Source: Heliopora coerulea (Eukaryota; Cnidaria; Anthozoa; Scleralcyonacea; Helioporidae). From it: a DNA stretch of 64,000 nt. The notes under the pieces were generated by a model. The model made no database searches and was not told the origin of the DNA. It saw only the letters and a program-made list of their open reading frames with translations. Shown one piece after another: positions 1,969 to 44,100 of this stretch (position 1 is its first letter; each line of letters begins with the position of its first letter). The translations under genes and the position numbers were made by a program. The DNA lies in NCBI GenBank assembly GCA_030142905.1, contig JASJOG010000100.1:248001-312000 (forward strand), given 5' to 3'.

Positions 1969-3293
1969 CTTAAAAACTCGAATTTTAGAAAGGTCTGTAT
2001 CTGGAGTTAGTACAGGCTGTGTTGTAGGATTTTGATGTGATGTATTATTTGCATTGACAACATTTATGTATCAATAATTTATATAATTTCTTAAGTTAGC
2101 TGCTAGGGTGTGCAAACCCTTAGTGTTGAGATGTAGTCCACCTGCATTCAGACATATCTGTTGAATATTGTCATTCTTAATGAAGTCACAGTTATTAATT
2201 AAACAGAGCTGTTCAAGCAGATTATTAGTTTGCAGAACTTTTTCAAATAATGGTTTGTCATTCCTATTAATAACAGACGAGACTGTGATACTTACAGTAG
2301 GGTGTTGTTGTTTGATCCCACTAATAACATCTGACATTTTCTTCTTTATGGTTTGTGGATTGTCTCTGTGGAGGTTGTTTGTGCCAGCATGGATTATGAC
2401 GTGGTCGGGCTTTCTTTTCAGGATAGGCTTGACATAGTCTTCCAGATCTTCTATTGTCGCACCAGGAAAAGAATGCGATGTTACTTTGCAAGATTTTGAT
2501 AATTTTCTCCCGTTAATGAGTTTAGTCATCGAGTCACCAACGACGGCAATATGCCTCTTCCTTGGGGTTTGGTTTGGTCTGCCATTCGGTTGGTCATTTT
2601 GGGAATTTCTTGGCCCTTGAGGGGTTTTCTTGTTGTATACGTCTTGGTTTCCAGCAGCATCTGTTAGTTTAAGTTTGCCAGTATCGACTCGGCAGCTACT
2701 GTCGTCGGTTTTCTTCGTCTTTGTAGATTGATCATGCCTTTGACTTTGAGTTTGGTTTGCATTCCGTTTCTTCCCTCGAACCTCAATCCAAGGGTTTTTG
2801 TTGGACGAGATTTCTTTTGTTGATTGGTTGGATTCACATTCTTGTCTAAGCAATTTTATGACAGCTAATAGGTTGTCCCGTTCAGCTTCGAGTTTCTCAA
2901 TTTGTGATTTTAGGTCGAGCTTGGCATTTGAATTTTCGGTACTTCTGAATTTACTTTCGAGGCAGTTCAATTTACTCCATAATTCAGCGATTGATGAAGA
3001 GTTCTTTTCACAGCCCGAACATATATGTTGGTGAGAGTTTTCTAGTTCGAGAGAGTTCGATTCGTTTGCTTCGGATTTGTTGTTGTTGTTGGATAATTCA
3101 ACATGGCCGTCGTTCTTCACCGCCGCCGCCACGTGGTCTGTAACATCGGCTGGATTTGTCGAGTTATCGAAAGACACGATTAGTTTTCTGATCGCTTCAT
3201 GTTTTGCCCCTTGGACATTGAGAGTTTTGGTCCCAGGATAGAAGCAAATGGTAACAGATTGACTTTTAAAAACATAAAAACCACCGTTGTTTG

Positions 3294-3354
3294 TATTTCA
3301 GAATCATCCTCAGGGTATTATGAAAACGAAACTTCAACAATTAACCTACACTGC
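3294..3354 (-). ncRNA. Candidate hammerhead ribozyme across a retrozyme head-to-tail junction
   Basis: Read on the minus strand from 3354: GCAGTGT, then A (predicted H17, cleavage after it), a 33-nt stem I/loop segment opening with GGT and closing with ACC (3346-3314), the core CTGAGGA (3313-3307), one extra T, then GATTC and loop TGAAATA. The copy stops there, so the second half of stem II, the GAAA and the other stem III strand are missing in this particular copy. They are present in the + copy alongside. The core fits the hammerhead consensus CUGANGA; the extra T after the core is not canonical. Confidence 0.5.
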
Positions 3355-3682
3355 TGAAGTCAACTGAAAAATGTTGACTCGAGCGGGATTTGAACTCGCA
3401 TACTACCCTGAGGATGATTCTGAAATAATACCCTGATCATAATACCCTGAGGATGATTCTGAAATAGAATCGAAACACTGCACATCCATCCTCATGGATA
3501 GCGTTAAGTTGTCGCGAGAATATTTCGTGCACTTAAATTGGATAAAAACTCGCCTCCAATCCCTGTGGACTCGATAGCTCAACAGGTAGAGCGGCGGACC
3601 GGTATCCCGAAGGTGCGAGTTCAAATCCCGCTCGAGTCAACATTTTTCAGTTGACTTCAGCAGTGTAGGTTAATTGTGAAGT
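3295..3682 (+). mobile_element. Compound tRNA-bearing retrozyme-like insertion inside LINE-A ORF1
   Basis: 388 bp lie between two copies of ACCGTTGTTTGT (3283-3294 and 3683-3694), a 12-bp target-site duplication. The left part (3295-3402) is an inverted partial copy. On the minus strand it reads tail, 33-nt spacer, then the head of a next unit. The right part (3405-3682) is a nearly full + strand unit with a small duplicated head (3407-3428 and 3447-3466). Unit landmarks on the + strand: CTGAGGA 3447-3453, hairpin GATTC/GAATC 3455-3471, GAAA 3472-3475, tRNA-like module 3568-3639, GCAGTGT 3660-3666. Related copies are at 21604-21990 and 41480-41765. Confidence 0.8.
3568..3639 (+). other. tRNA-like module (72 nt) within the retrozyme-like repeat
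   Basis: Cloverleaf features: acceptor stem GACTCGA/TCGAGTC, D-arm with GCTC/GAGC, and a T-arm CGAGTTCAAATCCCG that is a good B box. The A-box region (TAGCTCAACAGGTAGAGC) is also typical. The anticodon arm is poor: the anticodon stem has mismatches and position 33 is C rather than T. It is therefore probably not a working tRNA, but it could keep internal Pol III promoter boxes. Other copies of the module are at 21624-21696, 21879-21950 and 41644-41715. Confidence 0.7.
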
Positions 3683-3902
3683 ACCGTTGTTTGTTGTATG
3701 TGACCAAGCGCCCTCTAAGTTCAGCTGATTCGCCACGAAGAGTTTAAGGCTTTCAAGGTCGTCTAGCCATTTAATCCTTGCCCTGTGATTAGTCCATTCG
3801 ATTAGGATTGGAACTCTGCTAATATCTTCTACACTTTCAACGTCAACTAGGTCGTGTTCGTCTCGATCGACAGAGCGCGATTCGTTCGTGCTACACGCCG
3901 CC

Positions 3903-4241
<339 letters not shown>

Positions 4242-5185
4242 TTTTATTGACTGAGTCAGTTGTGTTGCAGCTCAAAAGCTGAATTTTGCATTAACTATTA
4301 CATAAAAGTATGCTTCAAAACTAAAAGTTCAAATATAGATAACAGAAATAAAAATAAATTGTGCTAAAAAAACAATTTAAAAAATCATTTTGCTCGAATT
4401 GTATATATAATAATAAAACTATTTTTCAGTCTATTGGTCTTACAGCAAGGGACATTAAACTTACAAGTTTTTCTTAGACCAACAGAAGATCTATTGAATT
4501 CAGGCAGCAGATGATGTAACTTGTGATTTGTATCACAGCATATTTCTTCAGAAAGCTTTGTTGCCAAACTTTCTCTACGGTCATATAGGGATAGTAGGGA
4601 ACAAAGTTCCAGTGCCTTTACATAGCTAGATTGAAGGAAAATTATTTGCAAAGCACATTATTGTATTCTTTCTAAGTCATCAGATAGATACCTAGGTATG
4701 ATAACTTTGAGTGAAGCAACTACCTGAAATATACGAAAAGAAACTTCGTTGGCTACTCACTTCCTGATGAAGGGCCTTTGCTCGAAATGTCAAAGTTTCT
4801 TTTCGTATATTTCAGGTAGTTGTTTCACCCAAAGTTATTGCATCTTGTTATCCTTGACTACCTATACTGGCACCCATTGCTCAAGATACCTAGGTAGTCC
4901 ATTATGAAATATGGGACAAGTGTACTCTGTAATTGGGCTTATACAGGTGGTGTAAAAAGTTATGAGGTCTTTCTCACCAATTTCTGTTCTTTTAATCTAC
5001 CCGAAGAAATACAATCAAGTGGCAGCCTTTTTGACAATTTCACTAATGTGACAATTCCATTTAAGATCATTTGAAATATTCAGCTCTAGCAATTTTATGC
5101 TTGTCACAAATTTAATTAGTTTATTGTTAATGACTATAGGCTCAAACTGAGGCTTACATTTTGCAAAAGAAATTTGAAGTTCCTT
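4242..5185 (-). pseudogene. LINE-B fragment: RT thumb/C-terminal region and 3' end
   Basis: Minus-strand translation shows the C-terminal region of a jockey/CR1-like ORF2: KELQISFAKCKPQFEPI, KLLELNISNDLKWNCHISE, ITFYTTCISPITEYTCP, FHNGLPRYL, then, past an insertion, SDDLERIQ, YVKALELC, YDRRESLATKLSEE and CKTNRLKNSFI. Stop codons interrupt it around 5015-4980 and near 4655. A 185-bp element is inserted at 4699-4883. The 3' end is AATAAAAT followed by the ATCT tail. It is an old, 5'-truncated copy. Confidence 0.85.
4699..4883 (+). mobile_element. 185-bp foldback element with 13-bp target duplication and hammerhead-like core
   Basis: Flanked by AGATACCTAGGTA at 4686-4698 and 4884-4896, in the middle of LINE-B coding sequence. 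Long inverted arms (about 4699-4747 and 4791-4838) share CAACTACCTGAAATATACG and its complement. The loop between them carries CTGATGA (4764-4770), a short hairpin GGGC/GCTC, GAAA (4784-4787) and TGTC, with the right arm starting at once. The 13-bp duplication argues for retroposition rather than a TA-type MITE. Confidence 0.75.
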
Positions 5186-11163: not shown

Positions 11164-14100
11164 ATAGATACACAATGCGAAAATTTTTCTCCCTAGTCAC
11201 CACGCGTGTAACAGGACTCCACGCACGTCGAAATTAGATTATTGTTATTGCGTTAATTGTTTTACATTCTTGTTAAAAAAACAAGAGACAAAAGTGAAGC
11301 TCCTAATTTATTATGACCTTGAAGTTTTCATCTGGGCATGTTAGTTTTGCCCCTCAACTTGTCCAAATATGGCGACAATCAATTTTGCCCCCGCGATTCA
11401 GTGACATTTAGTTACACTGCCCCTTCTAGTTAATTTATGATTTCTATGTTCTCATCCCCTAAAGATGAATAGCATCAATGTATAAAATGTGCTTAGATGG
11501 ATGAATATCATCTATCTAAGGAAAACTTAGAAAAGGATTAGAGTTAGGATTAGGGTCAGGGTTAGGTTTAGAAATGAGGTTAAATCACCTGCGGGGGACA
11601 GTTAACCAGCCTCTTATCCCTTCTTATAAATATTTTAAAAATATACCCCACCATGCACCCCTGACCATCCATCCCATTAAGTTCCCCAACTAAATCACCC
11701 AAACAACAACCTATTGCATATGGGTGCCTTCATTTCCCTTAGATATATGATATTCGTCTTTCTGCCACGTTTTGTCAGTGTTGATGGTGTTTTTCTTTTC
11801 AAGGTGTGAGACTGGGCTGGCATTGCGTAACTAGCGACTACCAGAATTAAGCAGGGATTTGAAAACGGGATTGCGCCCGCCAAACGTCCGCTGGCTAATA
11901 CGCTAGAGGTCGTCGGTTATTTTTATAGTTATCAGGGCTCAGTATTGTTCGCAAACAAGGTCGTTTATTTTAAACATCGGCTAGTGGTAGACCAGGGGGA
12001 AAAGGTAGCTTTGTAATAAAAATTAAGGCCCAGCAAAGGATGCGTATAACAGCCATAGGTTGAAGTGTTTTAAAACATGTTTAATTCTAACGTTTCTTTG
12101 CGTCTCACAACATCATCAGAGTGTGGAAAATACCATACTCTGATGATGTTGCGAGACGCAAAGAAATGTTAGAATTAAACATGTTTTAAAACGCTTCAAC
12201 CTATGGCTTTCATACGCATCCTTTGCTGGGGCTTAATTTTTATTATAAAGGTCGTTTATTTACTTTAAAGTGTTTTCATTTGGTCCCTATCTAGGTCTAT
12301 TCGGCGCCAATTGCACCAACTTTTCATAATTATCTTAACTATTAAAACTGAACTTAGATATATGTTTAGATATATGTTTAGAATTTTTGGAGTAAGTTTT
12401 TCTAAATATTTATTTTAACCTACGATGTCAGCTTTCTCGGTGGATGGCAATCGAAGTATCCGGAGAACTCCGACGACTTTCTCCGGGGAGTTTACGAGGT
12501 CTTTTCTCTTACGTTCAAACATCCGATACGAACTGTAAGAGTAGGATTCTAATTTGATGTGGTGTCGGGGGACGGAGGCTTTTGCTGTCACTGCAGCGCC
12601 ACGAAAGGCTGGCTAGTTTCAGGTTATGTTTAACAAGCCGCAATAGCTTCACACCGGACTTTGCTGCAGCATTAATTTTGGTTTACAGAAGAAAATAGAG
12701 AGGGTATTTCATTTGATGGTCAATCTTGTTTGCTTGTCGTGAAAAAAAAATAAAGTAGAAAATTTTAAATAGTTTCATTAGTTTGCTGCATGTTATTCCA
12801 TTCGTATCGGCGTGTTTTCGTCGTCGTGAATTGCGCAAATCTGGTCGGTAGAAATCAAGAAAAAACAACCTTGTCTGGGTAATCAACCGCTTCCACGTGG
12901 CCACATGGTTGGAAAGAGCTGGTTGATGGATTGGAACGAGAAGAAGCGGCATACTGGAGAAACGTAAAGCTCGTCCAACCAATACGCTTTTTGTTTCGAG
13001 CTAGAAAGACCTAAAATACAGGTTAAAAAAAAATAAGACCAAAAGTTGAACCGTTCAGAATCCCAAACCAGCCAACGACTTAGAAACTCTAAAACAAAGC
13101 AAAATCTGAGGAAAAGTGACATCTTGAAAAACCTAAGATATTGGATGAAAAACGAGACAGAAAGTTGAAATGATCGCTTCTCTGCAGATTTTGCTTTGTT
13201 TCATACTTTTTAAAGTTGTTTCCACTGATGGTTATCAATAGACTGGATTTTGAGACAAATTTCAAGAGGTCTTCAAATTAGTCCATTATTTTAAGCTGCT
13301 GTACTGCAGTGGTTATAAGACAATCACTTTTAAAATGTTGTTGTACATAAGCAAAGAAATCCAGAGATTAATATGCTTATTAATACCTAAATCGAGTCTC
13401 ATATGTCTCATGTATTTTCCTGCAGGTCAGCAACCATATAAACTGTACTTCCGCGTTCGGTTTTTTCCAACTGAACCATCACGGGTCGCCGAAGATTTGA
13501 CAAGGTTAGGGCCTCTTAAATCGTAAAGACTTCATTTCACTCACGTTGTGCTGCAACACCATATTACAGTTGGGGTAAAGGACGTATTAGTATTAAGGGA
13601 CATGCATCATAAACTTGACGTACAGTGGGAATTTTGAAACCCTCTCGTTTGTCGACATTTCGTGAAATTTATCTCTTCACTGAAGTGCATCAAATAATAA
13701 AGGTTACATAGAGATTGACTTTCTGCTTCGTACATTGCTGTGTTGGCGTATTTGGAAGATTAGGTAATTACCACTAAAAGCTACCTATAAAATAGGCAGG
13801 TAACATTTCAATCTGCGGGCGGGATAAGACTTCTATTATTTTGCTCAGACTAACACTAGACTATTTTACTGATGAAGGGGGAGGTCCCGCAGTGAAAGGT
13901 TAATAGAATACCGAAATAAGAGGGATATACAAGTGCATTTTGAGAAGAAATAGTGCTATTATTGAGGCTTTTCCAAATTCCCAATAGGAAGCATAAGCAA
14001 ACACTTCGACAACGTCTACGGCGATGTGTTCATACGATAGAAATTTTCATTCAACAGAAAAGGAATGAATAATTGGAAGTCCCAAGAGTATTTTGAACAC

Positions 14101-20100: not shown

Positions 20101-23100
20101 TCCAAACACGCGGGATGTTGCGAGACTTGAGAAAAGTGTAAAAAAAAAAAACACCACCTGCTAGGCGAGTGTTTTTGGCTTTTCAAAAGTCGAGCAACAT
20201 CCAAAGTGTTTGGATCCCAGTATTCAAACAAGGGAATCCATTTGGTATTTCTTTCATAAAATAACGACAGACGAATAGCAGTTAACTTAAATAGACCCAA
20301 TGATGAAGTAAGCAATTCTCCCGAAAATGATCAACTACCAATCAGAGACGAGCTTAAGAAGATCGAACCTTTGTCAGCAAAGCGAAGCCACTTCAACGCA
20401 GTGAAATGGAGAAAAAACAAGCGAGTTTTTAAAACTATTCGAAGGTACAGCAAGGCACCAAGTGCTTGAATCACAGTATTTAAACTCACGAAGACCGTTA
20501 CGTGTTTCTTGTATAAAATAATAGACTGAACTTGCTAGACAAACTTCAGTACACTTTTGGCGGGAAATTTTCCGTGTTTGGATACTCTTATCCAAACACG
20601 AGTGTAAAGCAATCGGAGCTCGCGAACGAGTCGCGTTATTTTTTAAAGACAGATCATGGTTCATTCCATATACTGGCCTATCTAATAGAATAGCTTGATT
20701 AGAAAATCACTTTATGCACCATGGGGAAGATCAAAAGGCAAACCCAAAGAAGAGTTAGATCCTATTGTGTTTCACAACAGCTTTTTGCATTTTAAAAAGT
20801 TCTCGAACTTTAAAGGCAGCAGTCCAGGAGTCAACTTACACAGAACGACTTGTTGAAATGCTTGTGCAAACAGGATAATGGTTACGAGTTCAGCTTCAGA
20901 AGAAATCTTTGTAGGCAAAATAATTAACGTAAGGCTAGGGCAATACTAACTTTGAACAGATAATATAAACTTTTGTTTGGTTGCACTGCCTAATATGTCC
21001 ATAACATGAGCAGCACGGGTGAAATGATTCCTTATCAATAGGAACTAAAGCATACATGCCAACATATGTATATGTGAAACTGGTACGGTCGAGCGCCGAA
21101 GGCGCGAGAAACATCTAGGGGGGTCTAGGAGCATGATGTTTCGTATGATATATGGGGGCATTCGTGCGCCGTATGTATCATAAATTACTTCTTGTAAGCT
21201 TTTGTTAACGGAGATGTCAGGCTGGGTCATGCATGTCGATGTTTGGCGTTCATGATGAACGCCTAAGGGCTAACATGCATGCCTCAGTCATGGTGATGGC
21301 CTATTTTCAGTCACTGCCGAGAGATTTTTGCTTGGAGATTGTCATAAACTTAACCGAAAATCCTTTTTGTTTCTGTCTTTTTTTAAATTTGTCAAACCGG
21401 TATGCAAATAGTAGAAAATATTTAAAGCGGTACTATTTCATGCATTGTCGGTACGGAGGTACATTAGCACTCAAATCGGTACTGTACCGCCTAAATCGGT
21501 ACGGTTGGCATGTATGCTAAAGTTCTTTCCTTACTCCAGCGTCTTAGTAATCCGTTTTTCTACTTTTTAATAAGTCCTTGAATGTAGTACAAGTAAGTAC
21601 ATGAAACGGAAATTTTAACTCGTACTTTCGATAGCCCAACAGGTAGATCGGCCGACCGGTATACCGAAGGTGCGAGTTCAAATCCCGCTCGAGTCAACAT
21701 TTTTCAGTTGGCTTCGGCAGTGTATGATTATCATGGAAAATTTTCTGTTTATGCATCTCTGAGGATGATTCTGAAATAGAACTGAAACACTGCACATCTT
21801 CTAATAGATAAGCGTCAAGTTGTTGCGAGAATATCTCGTGCACTTAAGTTGGATAAAAACTCGATTCCAATCCATGTGGACTCAATAGCTCAACAGGCAG
21901 AGCGGCGGACCGGAATCCCGAAGGAGTGAGTTCAAGTCCCGCTCGAGTCAATATTTTTCATTTGACTTCGGCAGTGTCAGAATATCACGGAGAAATTTCT
22001 GCTAGCATTTGTTGTATTACATAAAATGTATGTCCCATTCAAAATCTCTTTCAACAATGACCCAAGATCCTTTTGACAACAGGTTTTAACCAAAGAAATG
22101 ATGAACGGTTGCGAGACACACTTAGCGTAGTTATTTGCGATATTCCATTTTCTCATCCAGTAGAACGTTTGACCAGTTCTAGTTACAATATAATCCTGAG
22201 TGGATTTAATTACTCTGTATATCTTGAGGTAGTACACGTTTTTGAGCGTCTCGGAGTGGTGCATGTAGTCCTCTTGGTAACAAGATAAATTCAGAAAAAA
22301 GCCTGATTGATGGGTCCTCTGAATACTGTGTTTTGTTTTTCACTCCCATCAGGACTGGGATTTCCACATAATCTGTAAATTTAATTTCAGGTCAAGAGTG
22401 GAGAAGGTGTTATTCAATCGTAAAAATTTTTACATCCAGTTGTTACCAGATGTGGATCGCGTAAGTATCATTGTGTTTTGCTCGTAAAGTCGTTGTGGTG
22501 AAGGTTGAGGACGCCTCATAAGTTATTGCGCCATAGCCCAATAACGTTGGCGGATTTGGCGAGGATGCAGGGGGAACCCACCGGTCAGCAAATGCACCCT
22601 CCCAGGAAGGAAAAGGAGTTTTGTACGGTCATCTTTTGGGACAAGCTGAAAATTCTAGTTTCAGAGCGCTTCTAATTCTCAAATGTTCCGGATGAACTTA
22701 TCCCTGAATCCCCGAAAAAGGGATAATTTTGAGATAGTTGAAATATTTTGACGGGTACTTGCCGCCCTCTTACTAAACGCCTCCTCCCCTCGAACTCCAT
22801 ATTTGCTATAGCTTAAATACATTGTACATCATATGCCGTCCACTCAGCGAAGTTTGAATGTTTTTAAGTATATTCTTACTTACACAAGCTTTTGTGAATG
22901 ACCCTTAACTCGTTAACGGTCTGTATCCAGTATATCGGACTCTTAGAACAAACGAACAAGTGAGAAAAACAAAGAACTGAAGAAAACTAACTCGGCCATT
23001 AAAAGGGTAATGACCCTATTTAGACGGTACGACTGACATATACGATTAACTCAACACAGTCTTCTGGCCATATTCGTACATAAGTAAGCCAATCGTGAAC

Positions 23101-26100: not shown

Positions 26101-29100
26101 GAACCAGCCTTTAGGCATCAAAACCTACTTACAGAAAATTAATTTATGGCTCCCATTTGTCACTGTTGTTAAATTTTTTTTACGTTCAAACCTGTTGAAG
26201 TGTCCACTTCCATAATCGAGCACCCCTTTTTACAATTTCCACCTTTCATCGTCACAGGCGACCATCTATCCCTTACTTCAGTTGAAGCTTCTCCGTAACG
26301 TTCATCCCCCGACGACAACGGCGAGGCAAAGCGCGTCTCCGACCTCAATAATAGCAAACGTCACCAAAGATGTGTCCTTCCAATCGAGCGGAGACTAGGA
26401 AATGAATAATTTTTTACTTTAGAGTATTTTTAACATCTTCGATGTCATACCCACTACGTTCCTCAACGCATTCTAGAATGTTGAAAGCTATCGGTCAGTT
26501 TTAATGTACAGTGGTTACTTGATCACCAACGCCGTTTCAGCTTGTTAAGCGCGGCTGATAACCTATCTAAAACGGCCACATTATCGACTACTGCAAGATT
26601 GGGTTGCAAAATTGAATTTTTGGATCAACACGAGTCAGTTAAAAGTAGATCGATGTCTCGTTCGATACTTGAATTGCCGCTTGAACAACCTACGGGCGCA
26701 TGATATGGGAAGACAAAGTGCTGTTCTATTCCTCGCTTTGGGCCACTTATCGATTTTACAAACAGTGGAGAGATGATGGGATTCATAATTGAGCTTCTAC
26801 CGACCAACTCAAATCTGTCGAATTGTGAAAGCGATAAAAATTATGGTATTCCGAGTTTGATAATTATTGGTCCGACTTTCCATTTATATTTACATTCATT
26901 TACATTTACATTCATTTACAAATTGTTTTTCTTCATGCTCGTCAGAATTACAAGCTATTCGTTAATTAATCAAGAAACGGCTATATTTGATAGTTATGAA
27001 ATAACACGGATCTTACACACGCTCTGATTGGATGAGTCTCATTTTCTCTCATAGTACAGAGACACGGCTGACGTCATTTTAGATAGATAGATAGATAGAA
27101 GAACTTTATTTACCCACGCTAACATCGTCAGTATGAAACTGATTTCCACGATGGGCGTGCACATGAACATTATAAGCTACTACAAAAGTATAGTAAATTG
27201 TTACAAAAGTTTTAGAAATTATTATAATACAGAAGACAAAATCATTAGGGATTACTATTACACTAGAAAAAGTTCATGAGAGAAAGAGTTCAAAGATTGA
27301 AAGTAATATAATTATAAGTTTATGATTGTTCTATTTACAGTTGTATCCTCTGAATTTAGGCTAGAGAATAGTATGAACAGCAAGTTTTCTTTTAAAACAA
27401 GTAAATGATTTTGTCGCTCTAAGCTCTTCTGGTAATGAATTCCATATCGAACCCCCATTAAACATAAAGCTCTTTTTCATATTGTTTGTACAAGGTTTAG
27501 GCAAACAAAGTGTGCCTGAGTTGTTCCGAAGATTGTATTTTATCAATTCATTTTTGAATGTAAAGAGTTCACTGAGGCAGTGTGGTCCCAAGTTATTTAA
27601 TATTTTAAACATTGTTTTGGCTTTAGTTTTAATTCGTTGTTCTTTTAGAGGTTCCCACCCCAGCATGCTCAGAACAGTTTCTTGGTTTACCTCATTAGGT
27701 ACATTTGCTATAATTCGAGCAGCTCTGTTGTGAAGTCTCTGAAGGCGTGTGGATTGTGTCTCTCCAAATACATTCCAAACTTCAGAGCAGTAGTTAAAGT
27801 GGGGTTGAATAATAGCATTATATACTGACCGAATTGTGTTTTGATCAACAAAATCTCGCAAACGTTTAAGGGCATATATTCCAGATGATACTTTCTTGCA
27901 TATGTTGTCAGTATTGCTTTTCCAAGACAAATGCTGGTCAAGAATTACGCCTAGAATTTTGCTTTCAGAGACTTGTTCAATTTGTTTATCCTCGATATTG
28001 ATTATAGGTTGTTTATCAGAAATTTTATTTAATATTGGTTTAGTCCCAATTAACATAGATTTAGTTTTTGCAACATTCAGGCTGAGTTTGTTTGATATAA
28101 GCCATTTCCGAAGTCTTTCTAAATCTGAATTCACTGCATCCTCAACCTCATTCAGTGAGTTACCAGCTGCTGTAATATTTGTATCATCTGCAAATAACCG
28201 GGGTTTAGTTTGAGCAAGACATGATGGCAGATCATTTATGTAAAGCAAAAAGAACAGGGGATCCAAAATAGAGCCTTGTGGTACTCCACATTTAATATTA
28301 CATTCAGATGAGATAGATCCATTCACTTCACATTTCTGTTTACGATTAGTTAAGTAGGACTTAAGAAGGGAGTAGGCATTACCTTTGATTCCATATAGTG
28401 ATAACTTATCCAGTAAAATTTGGTGGTTAACAGTATCAAAGGCCTTTTTTAGGTCTATGAATACAATAAGATTAAACAATTTTCTATCCATGTTTATGTA
28501 CCAGTCATTAGTACAATCTAGTAAGGCTGTAGCAGTTGAATGGAGCTCACGGAAGCCAAACTGATGTTCAGAAAACAGATTATTTGTTTGTAAATAATCA
28601 TGTAATTGGTTGTAGATAATTCGTTCCATGACTTTGCTTATGGCAGGTAGAATTGAAATAGGCCGATAATTACCTGGTAGGTTTCGATTACCATTTTTAA
28701 AAAGTGGAATTACTTTTGCCATTTTCCAGTCATTGGGGAAGGTGCATAAAGTAATACTTTGATTGAAAATGTATGTTAGCGAATCTGAAATCATGGGTGC
28801 TGCAATTTTCATAATTTTACTGGATATTTTATCAATTCCAGTAGACTTATTACCCGATAATCGAGATAGTAACTGACACACGTTATTTACAGTAACTGGT
28901 TTGAATGAAGTAAACTCAGATTTAGTTGTCTTAATATATTGTTTATAATGGTAATTGGTTGTACCAATCTCTTCAGCAAGATTTGGTCCAATATTTGAAA
29001 AGTAATCATTAAAAGCCTCTGCAATATCACATTGGTTTGTCAACTTCTGTTTATCTATATTCAATTCATTTACTATTGTTTTCTTATTATATTTACCTAG

Positions 29101-32100
29101 TTGACTATTTATTACCTTCCAAGCAGCTTTTGGATTTTTCTTATTTGCTGAAATTTTACTGGAAAAATAATCAACTTTGGCCTGCCTAAGTCGAGTGGTT
29201 GTCTCATTTCTCACTTTCCTATAAGCAACCCAGTCTTTTTCAAGTTTGGAGATCATGGCTACTCTTTTTAACCTATCCCTTATGTTAATCAGTTTTTTAA
29301 TATCTTTTGTTATCCAGGGAACTGATTTTGATTTGATTTTCTTCTTCTGGATGGGAGCATGCTTGTTAAGAATTTCTAAAAATAATTCTCTCCAAACATC
29401 CCACATACTATCTGGGCTATCTGCAAAGAAATATACATAATCCCATGTCTGATGTGATAAGTCTTGTAGAAACAGATTTTTGTTAAAGTTTTTCATGTTT
29501 CTAATATCAGTGATATTTTGTTTTTCGCTCTGAGTGATGTTGATTTTCCTTATAGCAAAAATAAGGCTATGGTCACTTATTCCTGTGTGGATTACACCAG
29601 ACTTGCAAATTTTCTCTGGCATGTTTGTTATGAAATGATCAATGAGGGTAGAGGAGGTCATAGTCACTCGTGTGGCTTCATTTATTAGTTGAGTTAATTG
29701 GTAGGTTTCTAATAATGATATTAGTGTCTTAGTTGGTTGATCTAAATTTGTTTTGATCAAATCACAATTCAGATCTCCAAGGATACAAATTTCTTTATTT
29801 TCATTATCAATAGTTTGTATCAAATTTTCAAAATGGGTAAAAAATTCAGGAGAAGCATTTGGTGTTCGGTAAACAGCAACAACTATGAAAGGCCGACTGT
29901 GAGGTTTGGTTATTTCTATACAAACTGCTTCAAAATCTGTTGGTACAATGTCATGTCTTATCTGGTAGTTTAAAGAGCTACGCAGGTAGATACATACACC
30001 ACCTCCATTTCTACTTCTATCATTTCGGACAATATCATAGCCAGGTATATTAATCATATTATCAGTTATAGCTGGACTAAGCCTGGTTTCATTGAGAGCA
30101 AATAAATCTAGGTAATTTTGTGACATTATGTAAATAATTTCATTGAGTTTTTTGGGTAAACTCACAATATTCAGAAATGCCATTTTAAATCCCCGTTGTT
30201 TTGAAAAAGATTTAAGGTTGCTTAATAGGTCATTGCAATAGGAAAGGTTGCTGCTCACATTATTCATATCATAAAAGGATTTCATATCATTGGGAAAATT
30301 GTTACTTATGTTTGTTTCTAATACTTCACTGCCTATTTCCTGGTAATGTGGTAAACATTCTTCAGATGGTTTATCCAGTCTCTTGGGCGATTCTGCCAGT
30401 GTTGGACAGTTCGAAAAAAATCATTGCTTCTATAATTTACACTAATGTTGCTTGGCCTGATTGATCTAAGGTAATGACAAAATGCTTTACCAAGAGATCG
30501 ATCACCACTTTGACTGAGGTGTAGATTTGACCGGTTAAGCATATTTCTATTTATAGTATTATTGTTAATAAATGTTGCTTTATGCTTCTTGCATAAATCA
30601 ATTAAAGCATTATTAAATTTAATAATTTTGTCAGAAGGAACCTTTTTGTCATACCTCATAACAACACTTGAAACAGCAACATTCTTTGCTTTTTCCTTTG
30701 ATTCCATAACAAGTGTTTCCATTTTGTCCACTGATTTTTTAACTTCTTCATCCACAAGATTGTTTGTTCCAGCATGTAAAATAATGCTGTGCATTTTCTC
30801 ACATCTTCCACTAAATTCCTCTTTAAATTGTTGATTTATTTGCTCGATATGATCGGCACAAAGCTTTGGCTTGAGCAGCTCTTGAAATTTTGTTTTGATC
30901 AATGTTCTTTATCATTGAGTCACCCAAAACAAGCACTTTGGGCAAGGAGTTGCCTTTCAATTTGTGGTCTTCGCTGATGTTTCCTTCTTGATTTTGTGCA
31001 TTGAAATTTTTTCTCTGAGATTCTCAATAATTGTTTAGTTGGGTGGAGAAGCATTCATTTGACTCACCATTTTGGTTTCCGGGTATTAGGTTGTTGCTTG
31101 TATCTGGTTCATGGGACATTTGTGTTTGGCTTGATAGTTCGATCTCTTCAACTTCAAGAGAAGCATATCGATTTGAGGTTTCAAGTCGGATAGATTCATC
31201 TCGCACAGTGCTTTCTGATGTCAATCTCTTATTGTTCTCTATTTTTAACCACTCGTTTTGTTTAATGCCTAAGATGGACTTTATCTGTGCGTTTTCGTTG
31301 ATGGTTTCTTCCACGACCGTTTGGAGGGTTTTGATCTTGTCCGCCATTATGAAATTGTCTTCTTGCAGTTTGTTTATGATATCATCAGACTCTGTATTTG
31401 GATCATCGTTCCTCTGTTTAGCTAATAATTTGTCGAGAAGATTGTTCATTTTTATCATTTGATCCTTCATGCAGCTTAATTCCTTCTCGTTTTGAAGACA
31501 TCTGTCGCATGCTTGAGAAGTCAAATTTGTTTGTGATGGCTCGAGCAAAGTTTCCACGTGGTCGTGCGTGTTGGAACCGATTTCGCTGTTTTGATTCGTA
31601 TTCTTTCTGGGATCTGGTTGTAGATTGTCGTCAATCACAGCATTCCTTCCTTTATTCCTGTCGTTGGTCTGCTCGTTAAGTCCTTGTTTGGAGATCACTT
31701 GTTTGTTTGGTTCCATACGAGTACAGTGGTTATTCAATTATCCGGCCGGTGTGGTACAGGGGAATCTGAAAAATGTCCGGATAATCAAAAAATCCGGATA
31801 ATCGAAAACATAATAAAACACCCACTAGCACTGTAAAAAAGTTTTTTCTCTGCCTTGTCAAAAAGTATAATTACAAAAATAAAGTTATTTTGGGCGGAAA
31901 AAGGCGTGAATTTTCGGTTGTACCCGTGCGGCCCATATATGTGAAAGGAACAATGACCAAATATGGTAAACGAAAATTTACATCGTGACTGTTGGAACGG
32001 TTTGTGGTTACCTGCACCATTTTGTTTGTTACGCTTTTTGATGGCGCAGCAAGAATGATGTGCGGCGCGGTGATTTATGTTTTTTTTTGGACACAAGGTA

Positions 32101-35100
32101 TAGTTTTCGTTTTCAAACTCGAGGTTCCGATGTTAGGCCGGATAATTGAAGTCCGGATAAACGAGGGGTCGGATAATTGAATAACCACTGTATCTGAATT
32201 GGTAATCGGAACAGCGTTGTCACTGATAAAACGTATTTTAACCGTCTCTTCAACGAGCTGTGCATCAATATGATCTATTTCTGTATCCTTGGCAATAAAT
32301 AAACCTTTCCCACCTTTAGATTTCAACTTATTTTGCTTTTTACCGCCAATCTTTTTCGAGCGATCGCTATTGTTACAAATCTCGCCTACGGCCGCCATAA
32401 GTTCGACGTATATGTAGAGTAGAGACATGAATGACGTCACAAAAAATCGAAAAATCCTTGATTATTTTATAAAACAAATAGAAAGTAGCTTTCGTGTCTT
32501 TGTACTGTGATAGAAACATGAATGACGACATTTCAACCAGAAAAATACTAGAAAACACTCGGCTACGCCTCCTGTTTTCACTAGGCATTTTTCTGGTTGA
32601 ACTAACGTCATTCATGTTTTATCACAGCACAGAGACACTCAAGCAATTTTCTATTTGTTAATTAAACAGTTATACTAAGTAACTCCAGTGATGTCGTATT
32701 CCTCCCCTAAGCCGACGCTATTTTTCCTTTCGTAAACGGTCTTGGCCATCCTATTGTTTTCGGGTTCCCCAAGTGTACCCTGAGGTCCATCACTGAATGA
32801 TGAAGCGTTTTGTAAATTCGCAATTTTGACGAAGGTCACCTGAGCCTGCAAGCTTGGTGTAGTGGTTTGTGCGACCAATAGCGATTACTACGAAGAGGGT
32901 TCGCATCCGTGGTGAAAACGAGTTTTCTATTAATTTATTTTATTTCCTTTGCACTCAAAGTGTTTTCTTTTTTTTTTACGCTGCAGTGTGATTTTCTTCG
33001 AGTTTTTGTGTAGTCAAAATGTTAAAATTAGCGTAATAAACTAAAGCGACTGGTGGTCAAGTTAGTGTGTTAAACGAGTCAGGAAACTCGTTACTGGTAC
33101 GGTTAGGTTAGGGTTTCGGTTTGGGTAAGGTGACCCAAGATAATCCGTTGTTGAATTTAAAGTCAAGGAAAGAAAACAAGTGAAAGATTTTGAGTTGTTC
33201 CTTGTTTATGCGATTTGATGGAGTCAGGGTGCGGAGGGTACACTTGGGGAACCCGAAAACATTAGGATGGTAAATATCGTTTGGGGTGGCAAAGACCGTT
33301 TACGAAAGGGACAACTGCGTTGTTGTCGTGGTGGTAATTGCAATTATGAATGTGTCCAGTCTCGCAGTATATCACAACGGTTATAAGATTGTCATAACTA
33401 CATTTATTCGATTTCGTTGTGTTTGGCGCAGTGTTGCAGCGTTTTTGGAACCAAATTTTGTACTGACATAGTCTTATGTAGAAACTTGTGGGAAACCGCA
33501 ATTTATTGGATATGGTTTAACTCGTTAAGAATTTAATAATAGTATGATGATTAGTACGAATGGGTGTTGGATGGAAATTGACGTTTTGGCTGTTTTTGGT
33601 GAATGTGGTTCGACAAATGATAAAACATATTCGTATTTTGCTGTGCTGAAAAGTTCATGAAGGATGCCGACTGTCAAGGAGTTCGAATAGTTTTCTCTTT
33701 GCCTCCGTGAAGTATTTGCTCCTGATATTTTCTGTCGTTTAGTCATCTCACGTAGAGCTTAAACGTCGAACGTTCTACGTGTGGAACATGCTGAAAATGG
33801 GAAAAACGTTTCCTTTTCGCGCGTTTGCATTTTAGTTCAACTCATTTTGTGCTATATTTATTTTTTTCTTTTTCCTTTTTTGCTTTTTTTTTGAGAAGTA
33901 CAGAGATGCGCTAATCACCCAGAATTAGGTTTGCGGGTAAAAAAAAATTCTTCTCTAACCACACGTTTATGTTTTGCGCCAACGATTTCGTCAATTCGTG
34001 TCAAGGCCTTTTGTCACGTTCCAAGCAGTATTAATTATTTATCTATCGACGAACAAGCTTTGGAATTCCCATGAATAAGTGCTTTCTTTGTAAATGGTTT
34101 TATTTCAGGAAAAATTACCGTGCAAGATTAAAAGGTGGACGTAAACTTATTCGATTTGGATCGACGTACAAATACAGGTAACCAAAAAGTAATATCTCAG
34201 CGTGAAGTTATCGTGAAAAACTCTCGTATATTAAACTGAATCATGTTCGAACAGTATTAGTCGACTTGTACCTCACATGGTTGAGTAGAGTGCCGCTAAA
34301 TCGTAGGTCCCCCTTCAGTCAACAAACTTTTCAATTAGCTTTAAAGGGGAAAGATTATTTTATTTTATTTTGATGTGTTGTGTTTTGTTCTGTTCTTATT
34401 AGTTGTGATGCGTATTATAGCGTTGTATTGCATTAAATTTTATTTTAATACATCTTATTTCAATATATTATATTCTATTTTGTGTTATTCCAAATCATTT
34501 AATAGAATGAATAAAGTTCAATTGTGTCAGGAGTTTCTCGCTTGATTCAAGTCACTTAAATCTTTTTACTACATCAGTCATTTGTCATCAGTCATTGACT
34601 TAGAGTGTTATGGCTGCTTGGAATGGATCATAGTTTTGGTAAATGCATGGCATAAGAAAAGAACAAAGATTACACTTCTTGAAGAGCAAAATCGTCTGGA
34701 GTTAGCCGAAATAGAATAGAAAAGAAGACGTTTCCTGCCGGTCAAGAATTAGTGATAATCGGTCAAAGTTAGATAGCAATATAAAACTGTTCACTGTTGC
34801 TGTCAAGTCGACCTGATTTGATGACTGTTTTGCAAAACAAACTATAAAAGACACACCGAGCTATGTTGGTATATGCGAAGGGTTCCATAAAAGCTAATGG
34901 AGTTATGTCCTTTAAATCACATGGGATTGATATCAATGTGTTAAAAAACCTCCTTCATTGATCATATATCAACTAAACTTTTTAGAGGGAGAACCCAGTG
35001 TCAGGCAATCGAGGCAGCAAGGCGGAGTTTCAGAAGAGAACCAGCTTTTAGAAGGTTGTAGTCGGTGTTTAATTTCATTTACGTATAGTACATTAGATTT

Positions 35101-38100
35101 TATTTGAAGTTCCTGTCCGTTTAAACTGATGCGCACCGGACAGCAAACTTATAATATGTCGTATGTAGCAGGCGGAGAAAGTTAGCTGGTTTAGTACCTA
35201 TCTTAAAAGCCCAAGGCACACGCTTAAAAGCCACTTTTCTGACTTAAGCATTCCAGTTGATTTCATGTAATTAGCAGTAAATACGACTTCGGTCTTCGTT
35301 TCGTTTACCATTATGGATTGTCAGTATATCACACTCTTCAACAATGAACTCTAAAGGAAGTTGAAGCGATTAGAAATACAGATTATTATCCCGATAGATT
35401 TGGTCATCAATTTTGTTTCACAGTGTGAATGGATGCACGACTCGACATCGTGGTCAGCTCAGCCGTCATACATGAATGGTCAACAAAAATTTTCATTAAC
35501 CACTTGTAGTTTCTCACCTTTTTCGGATCACCTAAAAACAATAAGCATACATCGAATAACCAAAACCAATATAGATAGACTTCAGAAAGTTTACAGCAGC
35601 CTTCGATGAAGAAGAGTTTGCGCGCTCGTGATATAATCCTTGAGATGCACCAGAAATTATCTATACTAGGATTGCTTTGCGCCTCGTAGTGGCCGGTGAG
35701 GGAGTCGTTCACTGCTAGCGAAAATTTTCAGTCGTTGGTAAAACAGGAAAACCCTTTCTTCCAGGAAATATTTAAATTTTCACAAATTCTGATCTTCAAA
35801 CAAAAACGTTGATTACAGTTGCCACAGGAGGAATATTAAATTTACGGTTCTTGGTGCTATTGTACTGTGTCTGATTTTATTGAAATTGGCCAGATGTCAC
35901 ACAAGATTCGTTGCAGGCTGCTTGCTTGCACTGTTTGTTTTATGCATTGTTTTTGCTTTTGTTCTGTCTTATTTTTTACCTGAGCAAAAGTCTTTCCTTT
36001 GAAGACAGATATACTGTAAACACAGCCGAAACATTTTTTTTTAACTTCGGTCAACGGCCCCTTGAAAATCAGATGCAAAATTGCTATGAAGGGTCACCGT
36101 TTTTATATGTTTAAATAAATAAACAAACACAAATGAATAAACGAATGAATGAATGAATGAATGAATATTAGGAGAACTGAACCGCAGAGTAGAGCGCACT
36201 GAGACAACACTCCGACGAGAACCATGACAAAATAAACAAGCATAATGAACGATTGAAGTCACATTGATTCTCAAATCTTTTGGATATTTTGTTGCCAAAT
36301 CATCCCAACGATATCTGGTAGCATACTTTTCCATCAGAGCACTTCGAGGAAAACGACAATCGTAAACAAACGATAAATAGTAATTGTTCAAATCAAAGTC
36401 GGAATGTGATTAACGAGCCGGAACGAGAAACGGAGTAAATAAACACTTCGGGCATCGCAGAACCAACCAACCTTGGAAGTAGTAACGAGGGGAAATTAGC
36501 CGCATCTTGTAATTTTTAATCTGATTTGTATTCTTTGCATGGTTCTTTTAGAACTGGTTTTAACAAATTTTCAGAGAGATCGTTTGGTAGGTAATCCAAT
36601 GTTGTATCGGATTGCTTTTAGTTTGTTTTTTGTTTATTTTGTATGTCAGTTTATTTATTTGTTTGTTCGTTCTTTCGTTGTTTGTTTATTTGTTTGTTTC
36701 TGTTTTGTTTGTTTGTTTGTTTGTGTATTTTATACATTTATTTTATTTATTCATTTATTTATTTATGTTTATATAATAATGGTATGTATATTTGTATGTA
36801 TGTGCATATTTACCTATTCATTTATTTGGTTTATTGGTTGGTTAGTTAGATGGCTGGCCGGTTGACCAGTTCGCCGTTTAATTGGCTTGCTGCCATTTTG
36901 TCTTTGTTTATCTATAGCCTTACAGGATGACTCAGCCAAAGTTTTAGCCTCCGTCTACCAACCCCGAAAATGCTTTTGAGCTGCTTTCTGACATCAGTTT
37001 AGTTGGCAAACGCTAGGCCGGAATATCCAATGCACTCCTGTACTTCGCTAAAGGATATATTAAATTTAAGCCCTTATCACACATCACATTTTTCATGCAA
37101 CTTGTTTTCTCAAAACGAGAGGTTGCCCAAAAGATAGAGTAAAGTTCTACTTTCAATTGCAATGAAGCATTTCTGCAAGTTGCAAAGCGATTGCAGCGTA
37201 AAAACCCCATCATGCAGCTGCAACAAATTTTTGCGACGCACAACTAGTTGCATGAAAAATTGCACCGTGTAACAAGCTTTAAGCTGATGTTTGATATAAT
37301 GAGGTACGTTTTGCGACTAATTGAGCGTAACTTACTTTGGTAATTAGCAGTTTGTTTGGATAAGTGGACTCTGCTGTCGAACAAGGTCACACTTCCCAAT
37401 GTTTTGAGAAAAAGTTCTGAAAAATTGACACTCTGTCACATTATACAGTTAGTCTGCTGGTTAGTCGCATACGCCGTCGAAAGTGCTGAGATCTGTTTTT
37501 GATTGACCATTAAAAGTAGACGTGAAAGATTATTTTTGTGGTGCAAATGTGATTAAGCCATGGTTAGTTAAAGACGACGATGAGGCCAGGCATGGACATT
37601 TCTGGACTTGGGCTCATGATTGGTAATAAAATTATAAGTGGTTGAACGGATGTAGTGACCGACAGTCGTCAAACTTTTCTGATGTTATTGTGTCTCAAGT
37701 AAGAATATCATTTACTCTTGCCATAGGAAAAGAAAGTCCGTCACATACAGACGCAAACCATCGCAGATTGCACGAAGATGCCGAATCTGATGTTGCTCCA
37801 TCAGTAACAAGCACATGCGGAAGGTATTCACAAGTTTACTTATTATCGTAACTGAAAAGAAGTTTTATGGTTATCCTACCTTACGTAAGTCAACAGAGTT
37901 AAATCGGGCAGGATTTCAGCTTGCCTGTGGACTTCCGAACCGCTGCTCCACCGTGAAATTTTCTCGTATCAAAGCTTGGGAATGAGTAACCAGAAAAACA
38001 CGGAAAGTGAAGCCATTACACGTCAAAGGTTATAAAATGTTTAAATGTAGTGTCTTTACTACGCGTGCTTTGATGGGTACTAATTTTTAAGGTTCGATTG

Positions 38101-41100: not shown

Positions 41101-44100
41101 GCGTATAACTTTAACACGACTTAAAGTCTGAACAATTGGCCTTCGGCTGTTCGGTACACATTTCTACAAAGTCATTCAGCATATTCCTAAAGTACAGTGC
41201 AGTTGAACCGTTCTATCTTACACCTAACAAGTTATGGTATTATAGCCACACTTTCGTTACATATGGAAAGATTCAGATTAAAAGTCTATGGATCGCTTTG
41301 CAGGTCATAACATCGACTGCATGTTTATTAATTCTGTTTCTAACCAGCGGAAACGTGCTAGGTGTGAAGTTGATGAGTCTTTCAATATTTCCGTTAGATG
41401 TGAACTAAGGCAAGTGGGGAAGGAGGCGAAATAAACGGGACACTAACAATGCAATCATCCTCTGGGTAACATGAGGAGAAAATGTCATGAAATGACCAAT
41501 GAAATTTTTTCTTCACGTTACCCTGAGGATGATTCTGGAAAAGAATCGAAACACTACACACCCTCACGGATATCGAGCGTTAAGTTGTCGCGAGAATCTT
41601 TCATGCTTTTTAATTGGATTAAACGAGCATACTGTTCCTAGTTGACTCAATAGCTCAATTGGTCGAGCAGCAGTCCGGTTACCCGAAGATGCAAGTTCGA
41701 ATCCCGCTCTGCTCAAGTTTTTTAGTTCACTTTAGCAGTGTAGGTCAATTCATGAAATTTTCTCTTAAAAACACAAACCTCCCCTAATTTAAGTTCATCA
41801 TCAAAAGGTTACTTATACTTTCGACATACCCTCTTAAGTGGTACAATGCCTCACCAAAATTTTATAATTTTTCAAACAACCGCTTATGTCTATTTCCTGT
41901 TTGCATCAATTGGTAGCTCAAGTGAACGCCCTCTGAGCAGCTTGTTCCTTGAGTTTCTCCAGCAGCAAAAAATATTCAACTTCAGAGACAGTTTTACAAT
42001 GACATGAACATTTTGTACTGGCAAGAAGACTTCATTTCAAACATTCCCTTCGTCTTCTTGCAGATTTTTGTTGTTGAAAAAACTAGGTATGGAACAATTG
42101 ATAAATAAAACTGCAGCAAACAAGAGTCGACGTAATCCATATACATATACAACATAAAACGATATAGAATCTGCTACAAATAAAAAATCCTGTTAGGATG
42201 TAACCACTTATTTGATATTTCGGCCTGATGAGAAGTATGTTTAGCACTAGCCGAGTTGGTGGTTTCAACTAGATTCTAGTGCTCCCTCATATCCTGCAAA
42301 CAAAATAATAGATCATACGGGATTTTCTTCACTAAGTATAGCGGCTGGCCAAAAGCCTTTATCTGTCGTTTAGTTACAATGGCCACTCTGACTCTGGTGT
42401 AAGGACCTCTCTGCAATTTATACAGTTTATTCTCGTTTGAAGCAAATGATTCAGCCTGAGCCTTCGTGCATGAAATGCACTGCGCAGTCATTCTAGGTAA
42501 AAACAAACATGTCCAAAACTTTTGGGTTTTTAATGAAATTATATTATTAACGCGAAATGCAGGCTACGTCCGAATTTAGTTGCTCGAATATCAATGAATC
42601 ATTAAGGAAGAGAAATAGGAAACTCAGAAATAAAAATAGGAAACTCAGAAATAAAAATAAGCGGAAAAGTAGCCAGGAGAATCATGGAAGCATGCTTTCC
42701 CAGAAAGTTTTGAAATTGTAAAATTTGCAAACGACAATTTTCTGCATTTTGGTCAACGAAAGTTGACATTTGTAAAGAACGTACTGGTACATGTATTTCT
42801 GGGAACTTGCTATACCCCATTGCTGCGACAGGCTAAAACATATCCATGAACACATAAAGTATGTAGTTGAATTACGAGTTCAAGAGCCTCTAATGGTAAA
42901 GTCTCCTTTAAACGCAGAATGAAATGTGCATCAGTATAAAAATGAGTGGTGAGCAGTAGAGAAAGGTGGAGTTAATTAAGCACAGGCCAAAGGCACGTCT
43001 GTTCGTGTAGCGTGAAAAATGAAAAAGTCAAATAATCAACCCGAATGAATGTCGAGTTGGTGATTGTTAGGGTGACGTAATATATTAAAAGGACACCGTG
43101 TTTACCAAGTGTTATTAAAATGGTTATGTGCCGACAAATTCGTGAATGTATCGGCAAACTTTCTTTGCATGAGAAGATAGGGAGGCAAATTCCCCCTCCC
43201 CCCACCTTGGCTAAGCAACTATATATGACCGTACTTTTTTCTGTACCCGGCTCGTTAAAAATAAAATACCAAAGTTCAGATAATTTAATAGAGAAAAATT
43301 ACTAAAGTTGTCTCAAAGCATTTGGAAGTTGGAGTGATACCTAATAATTTTTAACATTTGAATTGATGTTTTAATATATTCGCAAGTCCGAATCGTCTTA
43401 AATATATGCACCTTTCCCATTCAGATCAGTCCTCTTACGCCTGTGTTAATCTTTTTCTGTTATTAGATGAATGGCATTTTGAACGACGAAGGACTTCTCG
43501 ACGTAAAGTGAGAATTTGTTTCGTTTCTTTAGAAAAATTGAACTGTTTTAATAACTGAAAATTCGTCTCGGTTTTCTATTTATCTGCGGGATGCACGCAA
43601 GTTTAGGCGACTCGGGCCAAACTGCAATACTAAAAGTCAGAAAAACTACAAACCGAATAACTTGTTTTCGTAAACATACAGAGAATAAAGCATACTTCAG
43701 TTGACAAAAAATATATTCGTAGCCAACCCATAACACATCTGACAATCATTAAAAGAAGAAAGCAGAATTAGAATAAGACTGAAAAGTTCCTTTTATACTC
43801 CACAAACCTAACAGTTAGCTCAGCCTTAAATTAACATTGTCTGCCGTAGGCCACAGTAAAATCAAAAAGTCGGACGCGGACCGAAAATAGTTGATGGGAT
43901 CCATAGGTTTATTAAGACAGGCCAGTTAACGTCAGTCGGTGACCTACTGACAACCACCAACTTAATAAAGACAAGTAGAAGTTTTCGATTACCTTTCGAT
44001 ACCAAGTTGCCCAAGTACGGCTACCAACACTTGTGACTCATCAAATCCCTTCCTATCTAGCAAGTGGCATGAAGGCTTTCGATCGTTGTTGGCTGTGTGA

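What the first reader, a model, noticed from the sequence alone, without database searches (positions are those of the whole stretch)
21604..21990. tRNA-bearing ~254-nt retrozyme-like repeat with a hammerhead ribozyme spanning the tandem junction
Seen: two units head to tail. Across the junction the order is GCAGTGT, A, a 34-nt stem I segment, CTGAGGA, a hairpin, GAAA, CACTGC. That is the hammerhead order stem III - H17 - stem I - CUGANGA - stem II - GAAA - stem III, with a perfect 7-bp stem III including A15.1-U16.1. Predicted cleavage points are 254 nt apart; the other copies (3447-3667 plus a 33-nt spacer, and 41523-41742 plus spacer) give about the same length. Known: retrozymes are small non-autonomous retroelements with hammerheads that yield circular RNAs, reported in plants and animals including cnidarians. 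Unusual: each unit also contains a 72-nt tRNA-like module with Pol III A and B boxes, suggesting a Pol III-driven retrozyme. Caveat: one extra T sits between CTGAGGA and stem II in every copy.
Basis: partly seen in the sequence, partly recalled or inferred. Interest (0 to 1): 0.9.

Follow-up and report, generated by a model that had tools for sequence, protein, structure and literature searches.

The report
tRNA-bearing retrozyme with predicted hammerhead
A 254-letter repeat that carries a tRNA-like module sits head to tail in this probably animal genome; its unit junctions hold the core of a hammerhead, a predicted self-cutting RNA, which would let the repeat make and copy small RNA circles, although the copy reported here is probably broken.

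Summary
Two units lie head to tail, 254 nt apart. The tRNA-like module is real (Rfam 56.6 and 42.0 bits in the two best copies). The junction has the hammerhead order with a 7-bp stem III. In the reported dimer, however, stem II is broken and stem I is not paired next to the core, and Rfam finds no hammerhead. Two relatives (core boxes at 3447 and 41523) keep a perfect 6-bp stem II. A junction joined from overlapping pieces of one insertion passes a strict descriptor; 1 of 300,000 random circles passes a looser one. The extra T has a published parallel (unpaired A after A9 in CChMVd).

The copy at 3295-3682 is one insertion: a 12-bp target duplication, with the interrupted LINE frame restored in the empty site. 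It holds an inverted piece that crosses a unit junction. Its template was therefore probably circular or multimeric RNA, primed from both target strands, as shown in vitro for a Penelope-like enzyme.

'Pol III-driven' is not supported: T5-T6 lies 3-4 nt behind each of the four tRNA modules. tRNA plus hammerhead is known from schistosomes (type I); the type III order and the foldback insertions make this a new variant. Genome-wide copies could not be searched.

The parts
21605..22001 (+). Reported dimer: 5'-incomplete unit 1 plus unit 2; ends approximate
   Evidence: BLAST homology 21628-22001, nhmmer from 21605. A 7-bp candidate target duplication GAAATTT (21609-21615 / 21992-21998) is no evidence: 1015 of 5000 random flank pairs share a 7-mer
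21717..21793 (+). Tandem junction A with hammerhead order; stem II broken, so probably inactive
21724..21725 (+). Predicted cleavage site of junction A (after A17)
   Evidence: Position of H17; cleavage itself inferred
21759..21765 (+). CTGAGGA core box, followed by the extra T at 21766
21625..21696 (+). tRNA-like module of unit 1, degenerate (13 of 21 cloverleaf pairs; Rfam 18.3 bits, below gathering)
21879..21950 (+). tRNA-like module of unit 2 (17 of 21 cloverleaf pairs, 42.0 bits)
21954..21958 (+). T5 run behind the tRNA module of unit 2 (also 21700-21704 in unit 1); Pol III stop-like
3295..3682 (+). Copy u1: a single 388-nt insertion inside LINE ORF1
   Evidence: 12-bp target duplication and in-frame empty site
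3283..3294 (+). Left target-site duplication ACCGTTGTTTGT
   Evidence: shared 12-mers in random flank pairs: 29 of 5000
3683..3694 (+). Right target-site duplication ACCGTTGTTTGT
3295..3401 (-). Inverted piece of u1 that crosses a unit junction (tRNA T-arm, stem III strand, stem I, CTGAGGA, part of stem II)
3447..3480 (+). u1: CTGAGGA, T, perfect 6-bp stem II, GAAA, ACACTGC
3568..3639 (+). u1 tRNA-like module, 56.6 bits; ARAGORN calls Thr(ggt)
   Evidence: 18 of 21 pairs
3660..3667 (+). u1 stem III 5' strand GCAGTGT plus A17
41500..41766 (+). Copy u4: core at 41523, perfect 6-bp stem II, tRNA-like module 41644-41715, GCAGTGT 41735-41741, A17 41742; ends approximate
41454..41497 (-). Inverted stem I to stem II piece at the left end of u4; in sense its homology starts, by eye, at GGTC, the predicted +1 of cleavage
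34172..34364 (+). Older diverged copy; the aligned part does not reach the hammerhead core
   Evidence: nhmmer E 5.9e-7
37854..37972 (-). Older diverged copy, 3' half only
   Evidence: nhmmer E 1.4e-7

Best explanation
This is a likely retrotransposed repeat family with a 254-nt unit whose junctions carry a hammerhead core, predicted to cut multimeric RNA into units that would likely be ligated into circles and then copied back into DNA, probably by a Penelope-like enzyme. Shown: the tandem units, the core boxes, the 7-bp stem III, the 6-bp stem II in the two better copies, the tRNA-like module, and one insertion with a 12-bp target duplication that contains an inverted, junction-crossing piece. 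Inferred, in order: (1) a transcript of tandem units is made, more likely by read-through than by the tRNA-like module's own Pol III promoter; (2) the hammerhead cleaves after A17 in the type III order (stems I and II closed by short loops, stem III closing the tRNA-bearing body); (3) a host RNA ligase circularises the unit; (4) a reverse transcriptase starts inside stem I and stem II on both nicked target strands of a circular or uncleaved multimeric template, giving foldback insertions; at u1 the forward end lies 15 nt past the cleavage site. The reported dimer is an incomplete, mutated copy and is probably inactive.
For: Core and stems: with null models. Perfect stem II in u1 and u4. One search finds five half-hammerhead sites on the two strands (0.73 expected, largest of 30 random sets 3); two of them are the element's own (3447, 41523). 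Module-wise identity u1-u4: core 36/39 and stem III strand 7/7, against 7/17 in the spacer, 7/21 before the tRNA module, 57/72 in the module and 8/15 in stem I, whose length nevertheless stays at 33-34 nt in junctions A, B and D. Single insertion event: 12-bp duplication and LINE ORF1 frame restored across the empty site. The inverted piece crosses the junction, and both ends next to the duplication lie in the hammerhead: upper stem I (...GTGAAGT|) and the stem II loop (...CTGAAAT|). At u4 the inverted piece starts in sense at the predicted +1 (41497; one instance). Circular fold of the joined unit z = -4.3, 67% paired against 60% in 200 shuffles. Published: a Penelope-like enzyme cleaves and extends both strands and starts internally, leaving a 'tail' (PMC11167929, main text read); PLEs proposed to move metazoan retrozymes (PMC7229834, Discussion read); unpaired A after A9 in a natural hammerhead (PMC3705267, passage).
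Against: No Rfam hammerhead hit even at E <= 10 in three element loci. The minimum-energy fold is not the hammerhead: gaps 6.5, 5.4 and 3.4 kcal/mol for junctions A, B and C, and in a linear dimer of the joined unit stem II has pairing probability of about 0.01. Stem I pairing is no better than in shuffles. Without stem II, 10 of 4,944 window circles pass, and that is all the reported dimer passes. A block outside the hammerhead, 3500-3546, is nearly as conserved as the core (u1-u4 41/47; dim2-u4 37/47 against core 32/38). An extra T sits after CTGAGGA in each of the copies; other natural core insertions lower activity (PMC3088659, passages). Each junction is broken or incomplete in the genome; B and C had to be joined from overlapping pieces. 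The u4 inverted piece reads CAGAGGA, a core change. In the Penelope study, hammerhead mutants did not affect insertion and uncut RNA was the main template, so the insertion footprint does not prove cleavage.
Confidence: 0.66

Rival explanations
1. An ordinary tRNA-derived SINE-like or satellite repeat with a structured junction: stem III and a long stem I-stem II hairpin are real, but the hammerhead resemblance is accidental or dead, and spread is by a LINE.
For: The minimum-energy fold of junction B is one long hairpin closed by stem III; Rfam is silent on hammerheads; A and B boxes are good; a block outside the hammerhead is nearly as conserved as the core; CR1/L2-type LINEs are present in the window (type name recalled).
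Against: The descriptor is very rarely met by chance (1 of 300,000). The core is more conserved than spacer, tRNA module or stem I. The tRNA module is internal, about 120 nt from the start of the core, and is followed by a Pol III stop-like T run, unlike a SINE head. Junction pieces recur at three loci.
Confidence: 0.22
2. A Pol III-driven retrozyme as first proposed: the internal tRNA-type promoter makes the multimeric RNA that the hammerhead cuts.
For: A box 12/12 and B box 9-10/11 in 4 of 4 modules; tRNA-Gln-like sequence with a hammerhead in schistosome Sm-alpha (PMC2770079, passages); the T run is lost in the older copy at 37.9 kb.
Against: T5-T6 3-4 nt behind 4 of 4 modules and T4 in the older copy at 34.3 kb would stop Pol III before the junction. 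A monomer's Pol III transcript would start downstream of CTGAGGA. A dimer offers only one whole hammerhead, so no unit could be released (inference).
Confidence: 0.1

Closest known systems
Schistosome Sm-alpha / Sj-alpha SINE-like elements
   Same: Short repeat with a tRNA-Gln-like sequence and a hammerhead, high copy number (PMC2770079, passages; PMC4918200, passages)
   Different: Those carry a type I hammerhead (PMC8490949, passages); here the order is type III with a 7-bp stem III that closes the tRNA-bearing body, and there is an extra T after the core box
Metazoan non-LTR retrozymes (Acropora, Mytilus, axolotl)
   Same: Tandem units of a few hundred bp, GC below 50%, target duplications longer than 4 bp (PMC7229834, passages and Discussion); longest open frame here 53-66 aa
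   Different: Type III instead of type I order, a tRNA-like module, and a predicted fold that hides the ribozyme, as described there for plant retrozymes and viroids
Penelope-like elements with pLTR hammerheads
   Same: Tandem or partial-tandem organisation, internal start of copying, both target strands extended (PMC11167929, main text)
   Different: No coding region; longer stem III; a tRNA-like module
Helenus TRIMs (tRNA-like sequence in LTRs)
   Same: Repeated ends that contain a tRNA-like sequence (PMC10886601, abstract and two passages)
   Different: Helenus has PBS and PPT and 4-5 bp target duplications; here 12 bp and a hammerhead core

Membership tests
Hammerhead ribozyme | CUGANGA and GAAA core boxes with A15.1-U16.1 and H17 not G | tested here: met
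   (an extra T after CTGAGGA; H17 is A or C); not met in the inverted piece at 41454-41497, which reads CAGAGGA
Hammerhead ribozyme | Three helices I, II and III | tested here: inconclusive
   Stem III 7 bp (6 of 7 in u4); stem II 6 bp in u1 and u4 but 4 bp, set off from the core, in the dimer; stem I no better than shuffled
Hammerhead ribozyme | Covariance-model support | tested here: not met
   No hammerhead family; no locus holds a whole intact junction
Hammerhead ribozyme | Self-cleavage | not testable with these tools
   Needs in vitro transcription
Metazoan non-LTR retrozyme | Tandem units of 150-450 bp, GC below 50% | tested here: met
   254 nt, GC 0.42-0.445
Metazoan non-LTR retrozyme | Target duplication longer than 4 bp | tested here: met
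   12 bp at u1; not established for the dimer or u4
Metazoan non-LTR retrozyme | Type I hammerhead | tested here: not met
   The stem I segment is 33-34 nt and closed, stem III encloses the body: type III order
Metazoan non-LTR retrozyme | Expressed as unit-length circular RNA | not testable with these tools
   No RNA data held
tRNA-derived SINE | A and B boxes | tested here: met
   (consensus strings recalled)
tRNA-derived SINE | tRNA head at the 5' end with no early Pol III stop | tested here: not met
   Module is internal and followed by T5-T6
Helenus / TRIM | 4-5 bp target duplication | tested here: not met
   12 bp at u1
Helenus / TRIM | Primer-binding site and polypurine tract | not tested
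   No call made

The most novel reading that the evidence does not exclude
An animal retrozyme of a new architecture: a type III-order hammerhead whose stem III encloses a tRNA-bearing body, and whose own stems I and II serve as the starting points at which a Penelope-like enzyme copies circular RNA from both nicked target strands, leaving foldback insertions that name the machinery which moves retrozymes.
Probability: 0.27. Interest if true: 0.78.

Novelty: new variant of a known kind. Interest (0 to 1): 0.56.

Why it matters
[quoted passage not shown] The footprint at 3283-3694 (12-bp duplication, inverted junction-crossing piece, ends in two of the ribozyme's stems) is a concrete signature that can be counted genome-wide and compared with Penelope-like and LINE insertions. 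A second tRNA-plus-hammerhead lineage beside the schistosome one would suggest that the pairing is selected rather than accidental.

Tried and rejected
Genome-wide copies: the genome search 'own' was asked 18 times with the same request and never answered. Exact-pattern scans gave 0 matches in 4 scans of viral contigs and 2 of genome contigs; the tool warns that records of the window's own genome may be left out there.

Naming the organism: a search with the LINE protein at 27361-30417 (120 of 306 hits listed) gave no usable organism names; one hit is named as a gammaproteobacterial MAG, which I take for animal contamination. 'Animal' rests on the LINE type (recalled) and is an inference.

Covariation: four junctions were aligned, too few and too gapped to count; the count of structure pairs and build_rna_model were not run. 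The constrained fold over-restricted pairing and is replaced; one search failed on an off-by-one and is replaced; the first cloverleaf count used a wrong structure string and is replaced.

Target duplications: 7 bp for the dimer and 5 bp for u4 were found; the first is within chance (1015 of 5000 random flank pairs), the second is shorter still, and neither is used as evidence. A DNA-transposon/MITE reading was considered and dropped because the ends vary and the inverted piece of u1 crosses a unit junction. The tRNA isotype was left open: ARAGORN says Thr, the box pattern reminded me of tRNA-Tyr (recalled).

Full report
WHAT IS THERE. The finding sits in a eukaryotic, probably animal, window (GC 34-40% per 4 kb) with LINEs: one carries an endonuclease and a reverse transcriptase domain, another an esterase-like ORF1 and an endonuclease domain, a make-up I recall from CR1/L2-type elements. 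The two units at 21604-21990 are head to tail. GCAGTGT occurs at 21717-21723 and 21971-21977, and the predicted cleavage points, after A21724 and C21978, are 254 nt apart. Unit 1 is incomplete: BLAST homology begins at 21628, the nhmmer alignment at 21605. Related copies are u1 (3295-3682), u4 (about 41500-41766) and two older ones, 34172-34364 and 37972-37854 (nhmmer).

THE HAMMERHEAD. Read across the junction, the order is stem III, H17, stem I, CTGAGGA, T, stem II, GAAA, stem III. Stem III has 7 of 7 pairs in the dimer and in the joined copy-1 junction, 6 of 7 in u4. Stem II is a perfect 6-bp GATTCT/AGAATC in u1 and u4; in the reported dimer it ends in AACT and only 4 inner pairs remain. 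The dimer therefore fails a strict descriptor and is probably inactive. Stem I is the weak part: it closes with GGT/ACC in junctions B, C and D, but its constrained energy is matched or beaten by shuffled stem I in 47.5%, 11.8% and 19.4% of trials for A, B and C.

CHANCE AND CONSERVATION. The joined copy-1 junction meets 7-bp III, 6-bp II and 3-bp I. A looser test (6, 4, 3) was met by 1 of 300,000 first-order Markov circles of the unit's composition, of which 24,650 held CTGANGA at all, and by 0 of 4,944 circularised 254-nt pieces of the window outside the main element loci. If no stem II is asked, which is what the dimer itself passes, 10 of those 4,944 pieces pass. Between u1 and u4 the core block keeps 36 of 39 positions and the stem III strand 7 of 7, while the spacer keeps 7 of 17, the stretch before the tRNA module 7 of 21, stem I 8 of 15 and the tRNA module 57 of 72; but one block outside the hammerhead, 3500-3546, keeps 41 of 47. 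This pattern fits a hammerhead under selection in source copies, and does not prove it; only three copies of the core were available.

EVIDENCE AGAINST. Rfam gave no hammerhead hit in the window at gathering or in three element loci at E <= 10; no locus there holds a complete intact junction, so the test is weak, but it is negative. The minimum-energy folds beat the hammerhead fold by 6.5, 5.4 and 3.4 kcal/mol for A, B and C; the best fold of C does contain stem II and most of stem III. In a linear dimer of the joined unit, stem III is formed (0.82-0.91) and stem II is not (0.01). Plant retrozymes and viroids are described as hiding their ribozyme in the same way, whereas most animal retrozymes are not (PMC7229834, Discussion read). 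The extra T after CTGAGGA is in each copy of the core seen; a natural hammerhead with an unpaired A at that place is described (PMC3705267, passage), while other core insertions lower activity (PMC3088659, passages). A half-hammerhead at 4764 in this window also has one extra base there.

HOW IT MOVED. The u1 insertion is flanked by a 12-bp duplication, ACCGTTGTTTGT, at 3283-3294 and 3683-3694; joining the flanks restores the LINE ORF1 frame. Random flank pairs share a 12-mer in 29 of 5000 trials. The insert reads as one event. It holds, from left to right, an inverted piece that runs across a unit junction, short repeats of the stem I-stem II region, and a forward unit. A linear, cleaved monomer cannot supply a junction-crossing copy, so the template was probably circular or multimeric. 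The two ends next to the duplication lie in the stem II loop (CTGAAAT) and in upper stem I (GTGAAGT), the latter 15 nt past the predicted cleavage site. u4 has the same kind of foldback at its left end, and there the inverted piece begins, in sense and by eye, at GGTC, the predicted first base after cleavage (41497); this is one instance and only a hint, and no target duplication was established for u4. A Penelope-like enzyme studied in vitro cleaves and extends both target strands and starts copying inside its RNA, leaving a 'tail'; its hammerhead was not needed for insertion and uncut RNA was the main template (PMC11167929, main text read). I therefore take a Penelope-like enzyme as the likelier mover; no such gene was found among the 8 proteins given to Pfam, and no wider search for one was made.

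THE tRNA MODULE. It scores 56.6 and 42.0 bits in u1 and unit 2, 20.6 in u4 and 18.3 in unit 1; the last two are below gathering. A and B boxes are good in 4 of 4 against recalled consensus strings, but the loop that should hold the anticodon begins CC, and pairing ranges from 18 to 13 of 21, so it is probably not a working tRNA. A run of five or six T starts 3-4 nt behind 4 of 4 modules, and four T in the older copy at 34.3 kb; the older copy at 37.9 kb lacks it. Such runs stop Pol III (recalled). A Pol III start at the module would also lie downstream of CTGAGGA. The module is best seen as an inherited promoter-like or structural part, not as the driver of multimers.

KNOWN OR NEW. A tRNA-Gln-like sequence together with a hammerhead is known in schistosome Sm-alpha (PMC2770079, passages; PMC4918200, passages), there as type I (PMC8490949, passages). 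Animal retrozymes are described with type I hammerheads (PMC7229834, passages and Discussion; PMC7761336, passages). A type III-order animal retrozyme with a tRNA-like module did not appear in six paper searches (capped listings, plus the papers named here); the library lacks most subscription papers, including the Penelope hammerhead paper. I call it a new variant of a known kind.

Noticed in passing
12011-12250: Near-perfect inverted repeat of about 110 bp (by eye) around a short loop; both arms carry CTGATGATGTTG(C/T)GAGACGCAAAGAAA, a half-hammerhead-like string, so it may be another foldback insertion of a ribozyme-bearing element.
   Followed up: partly
4764-4795: CTGATGA, A, GGGCCTTTGCTC, GAAA: a half-hammerhead that resembles Penelope-type ones (recalled), also with one extra base after the core box.
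   Followed up: no
41448-41538: Foldback hairpin at the left end of copy u4, enough to give miRNA-family matches below gathering in Rfam; explained here as an inverted junction piece.
   Followed up: yes
1303-4243 and 27361-31737, minus strand: CR1/L2-type LINEs (type recalled); the second has an open endonuclease-reverse transcriptase frame of 1019 aa.
   Followed up: partly
52395-52980, 55706-56194, 57313-57693: Minisatellite with nested 40/78/156-bp periods and two long simple-sequence arrays.
   Followed up: no
61003-63473: Diverged direct duplication with copies about 2.1 kb apart, 88-94% identical over the matched pieces.
   Followed up: no
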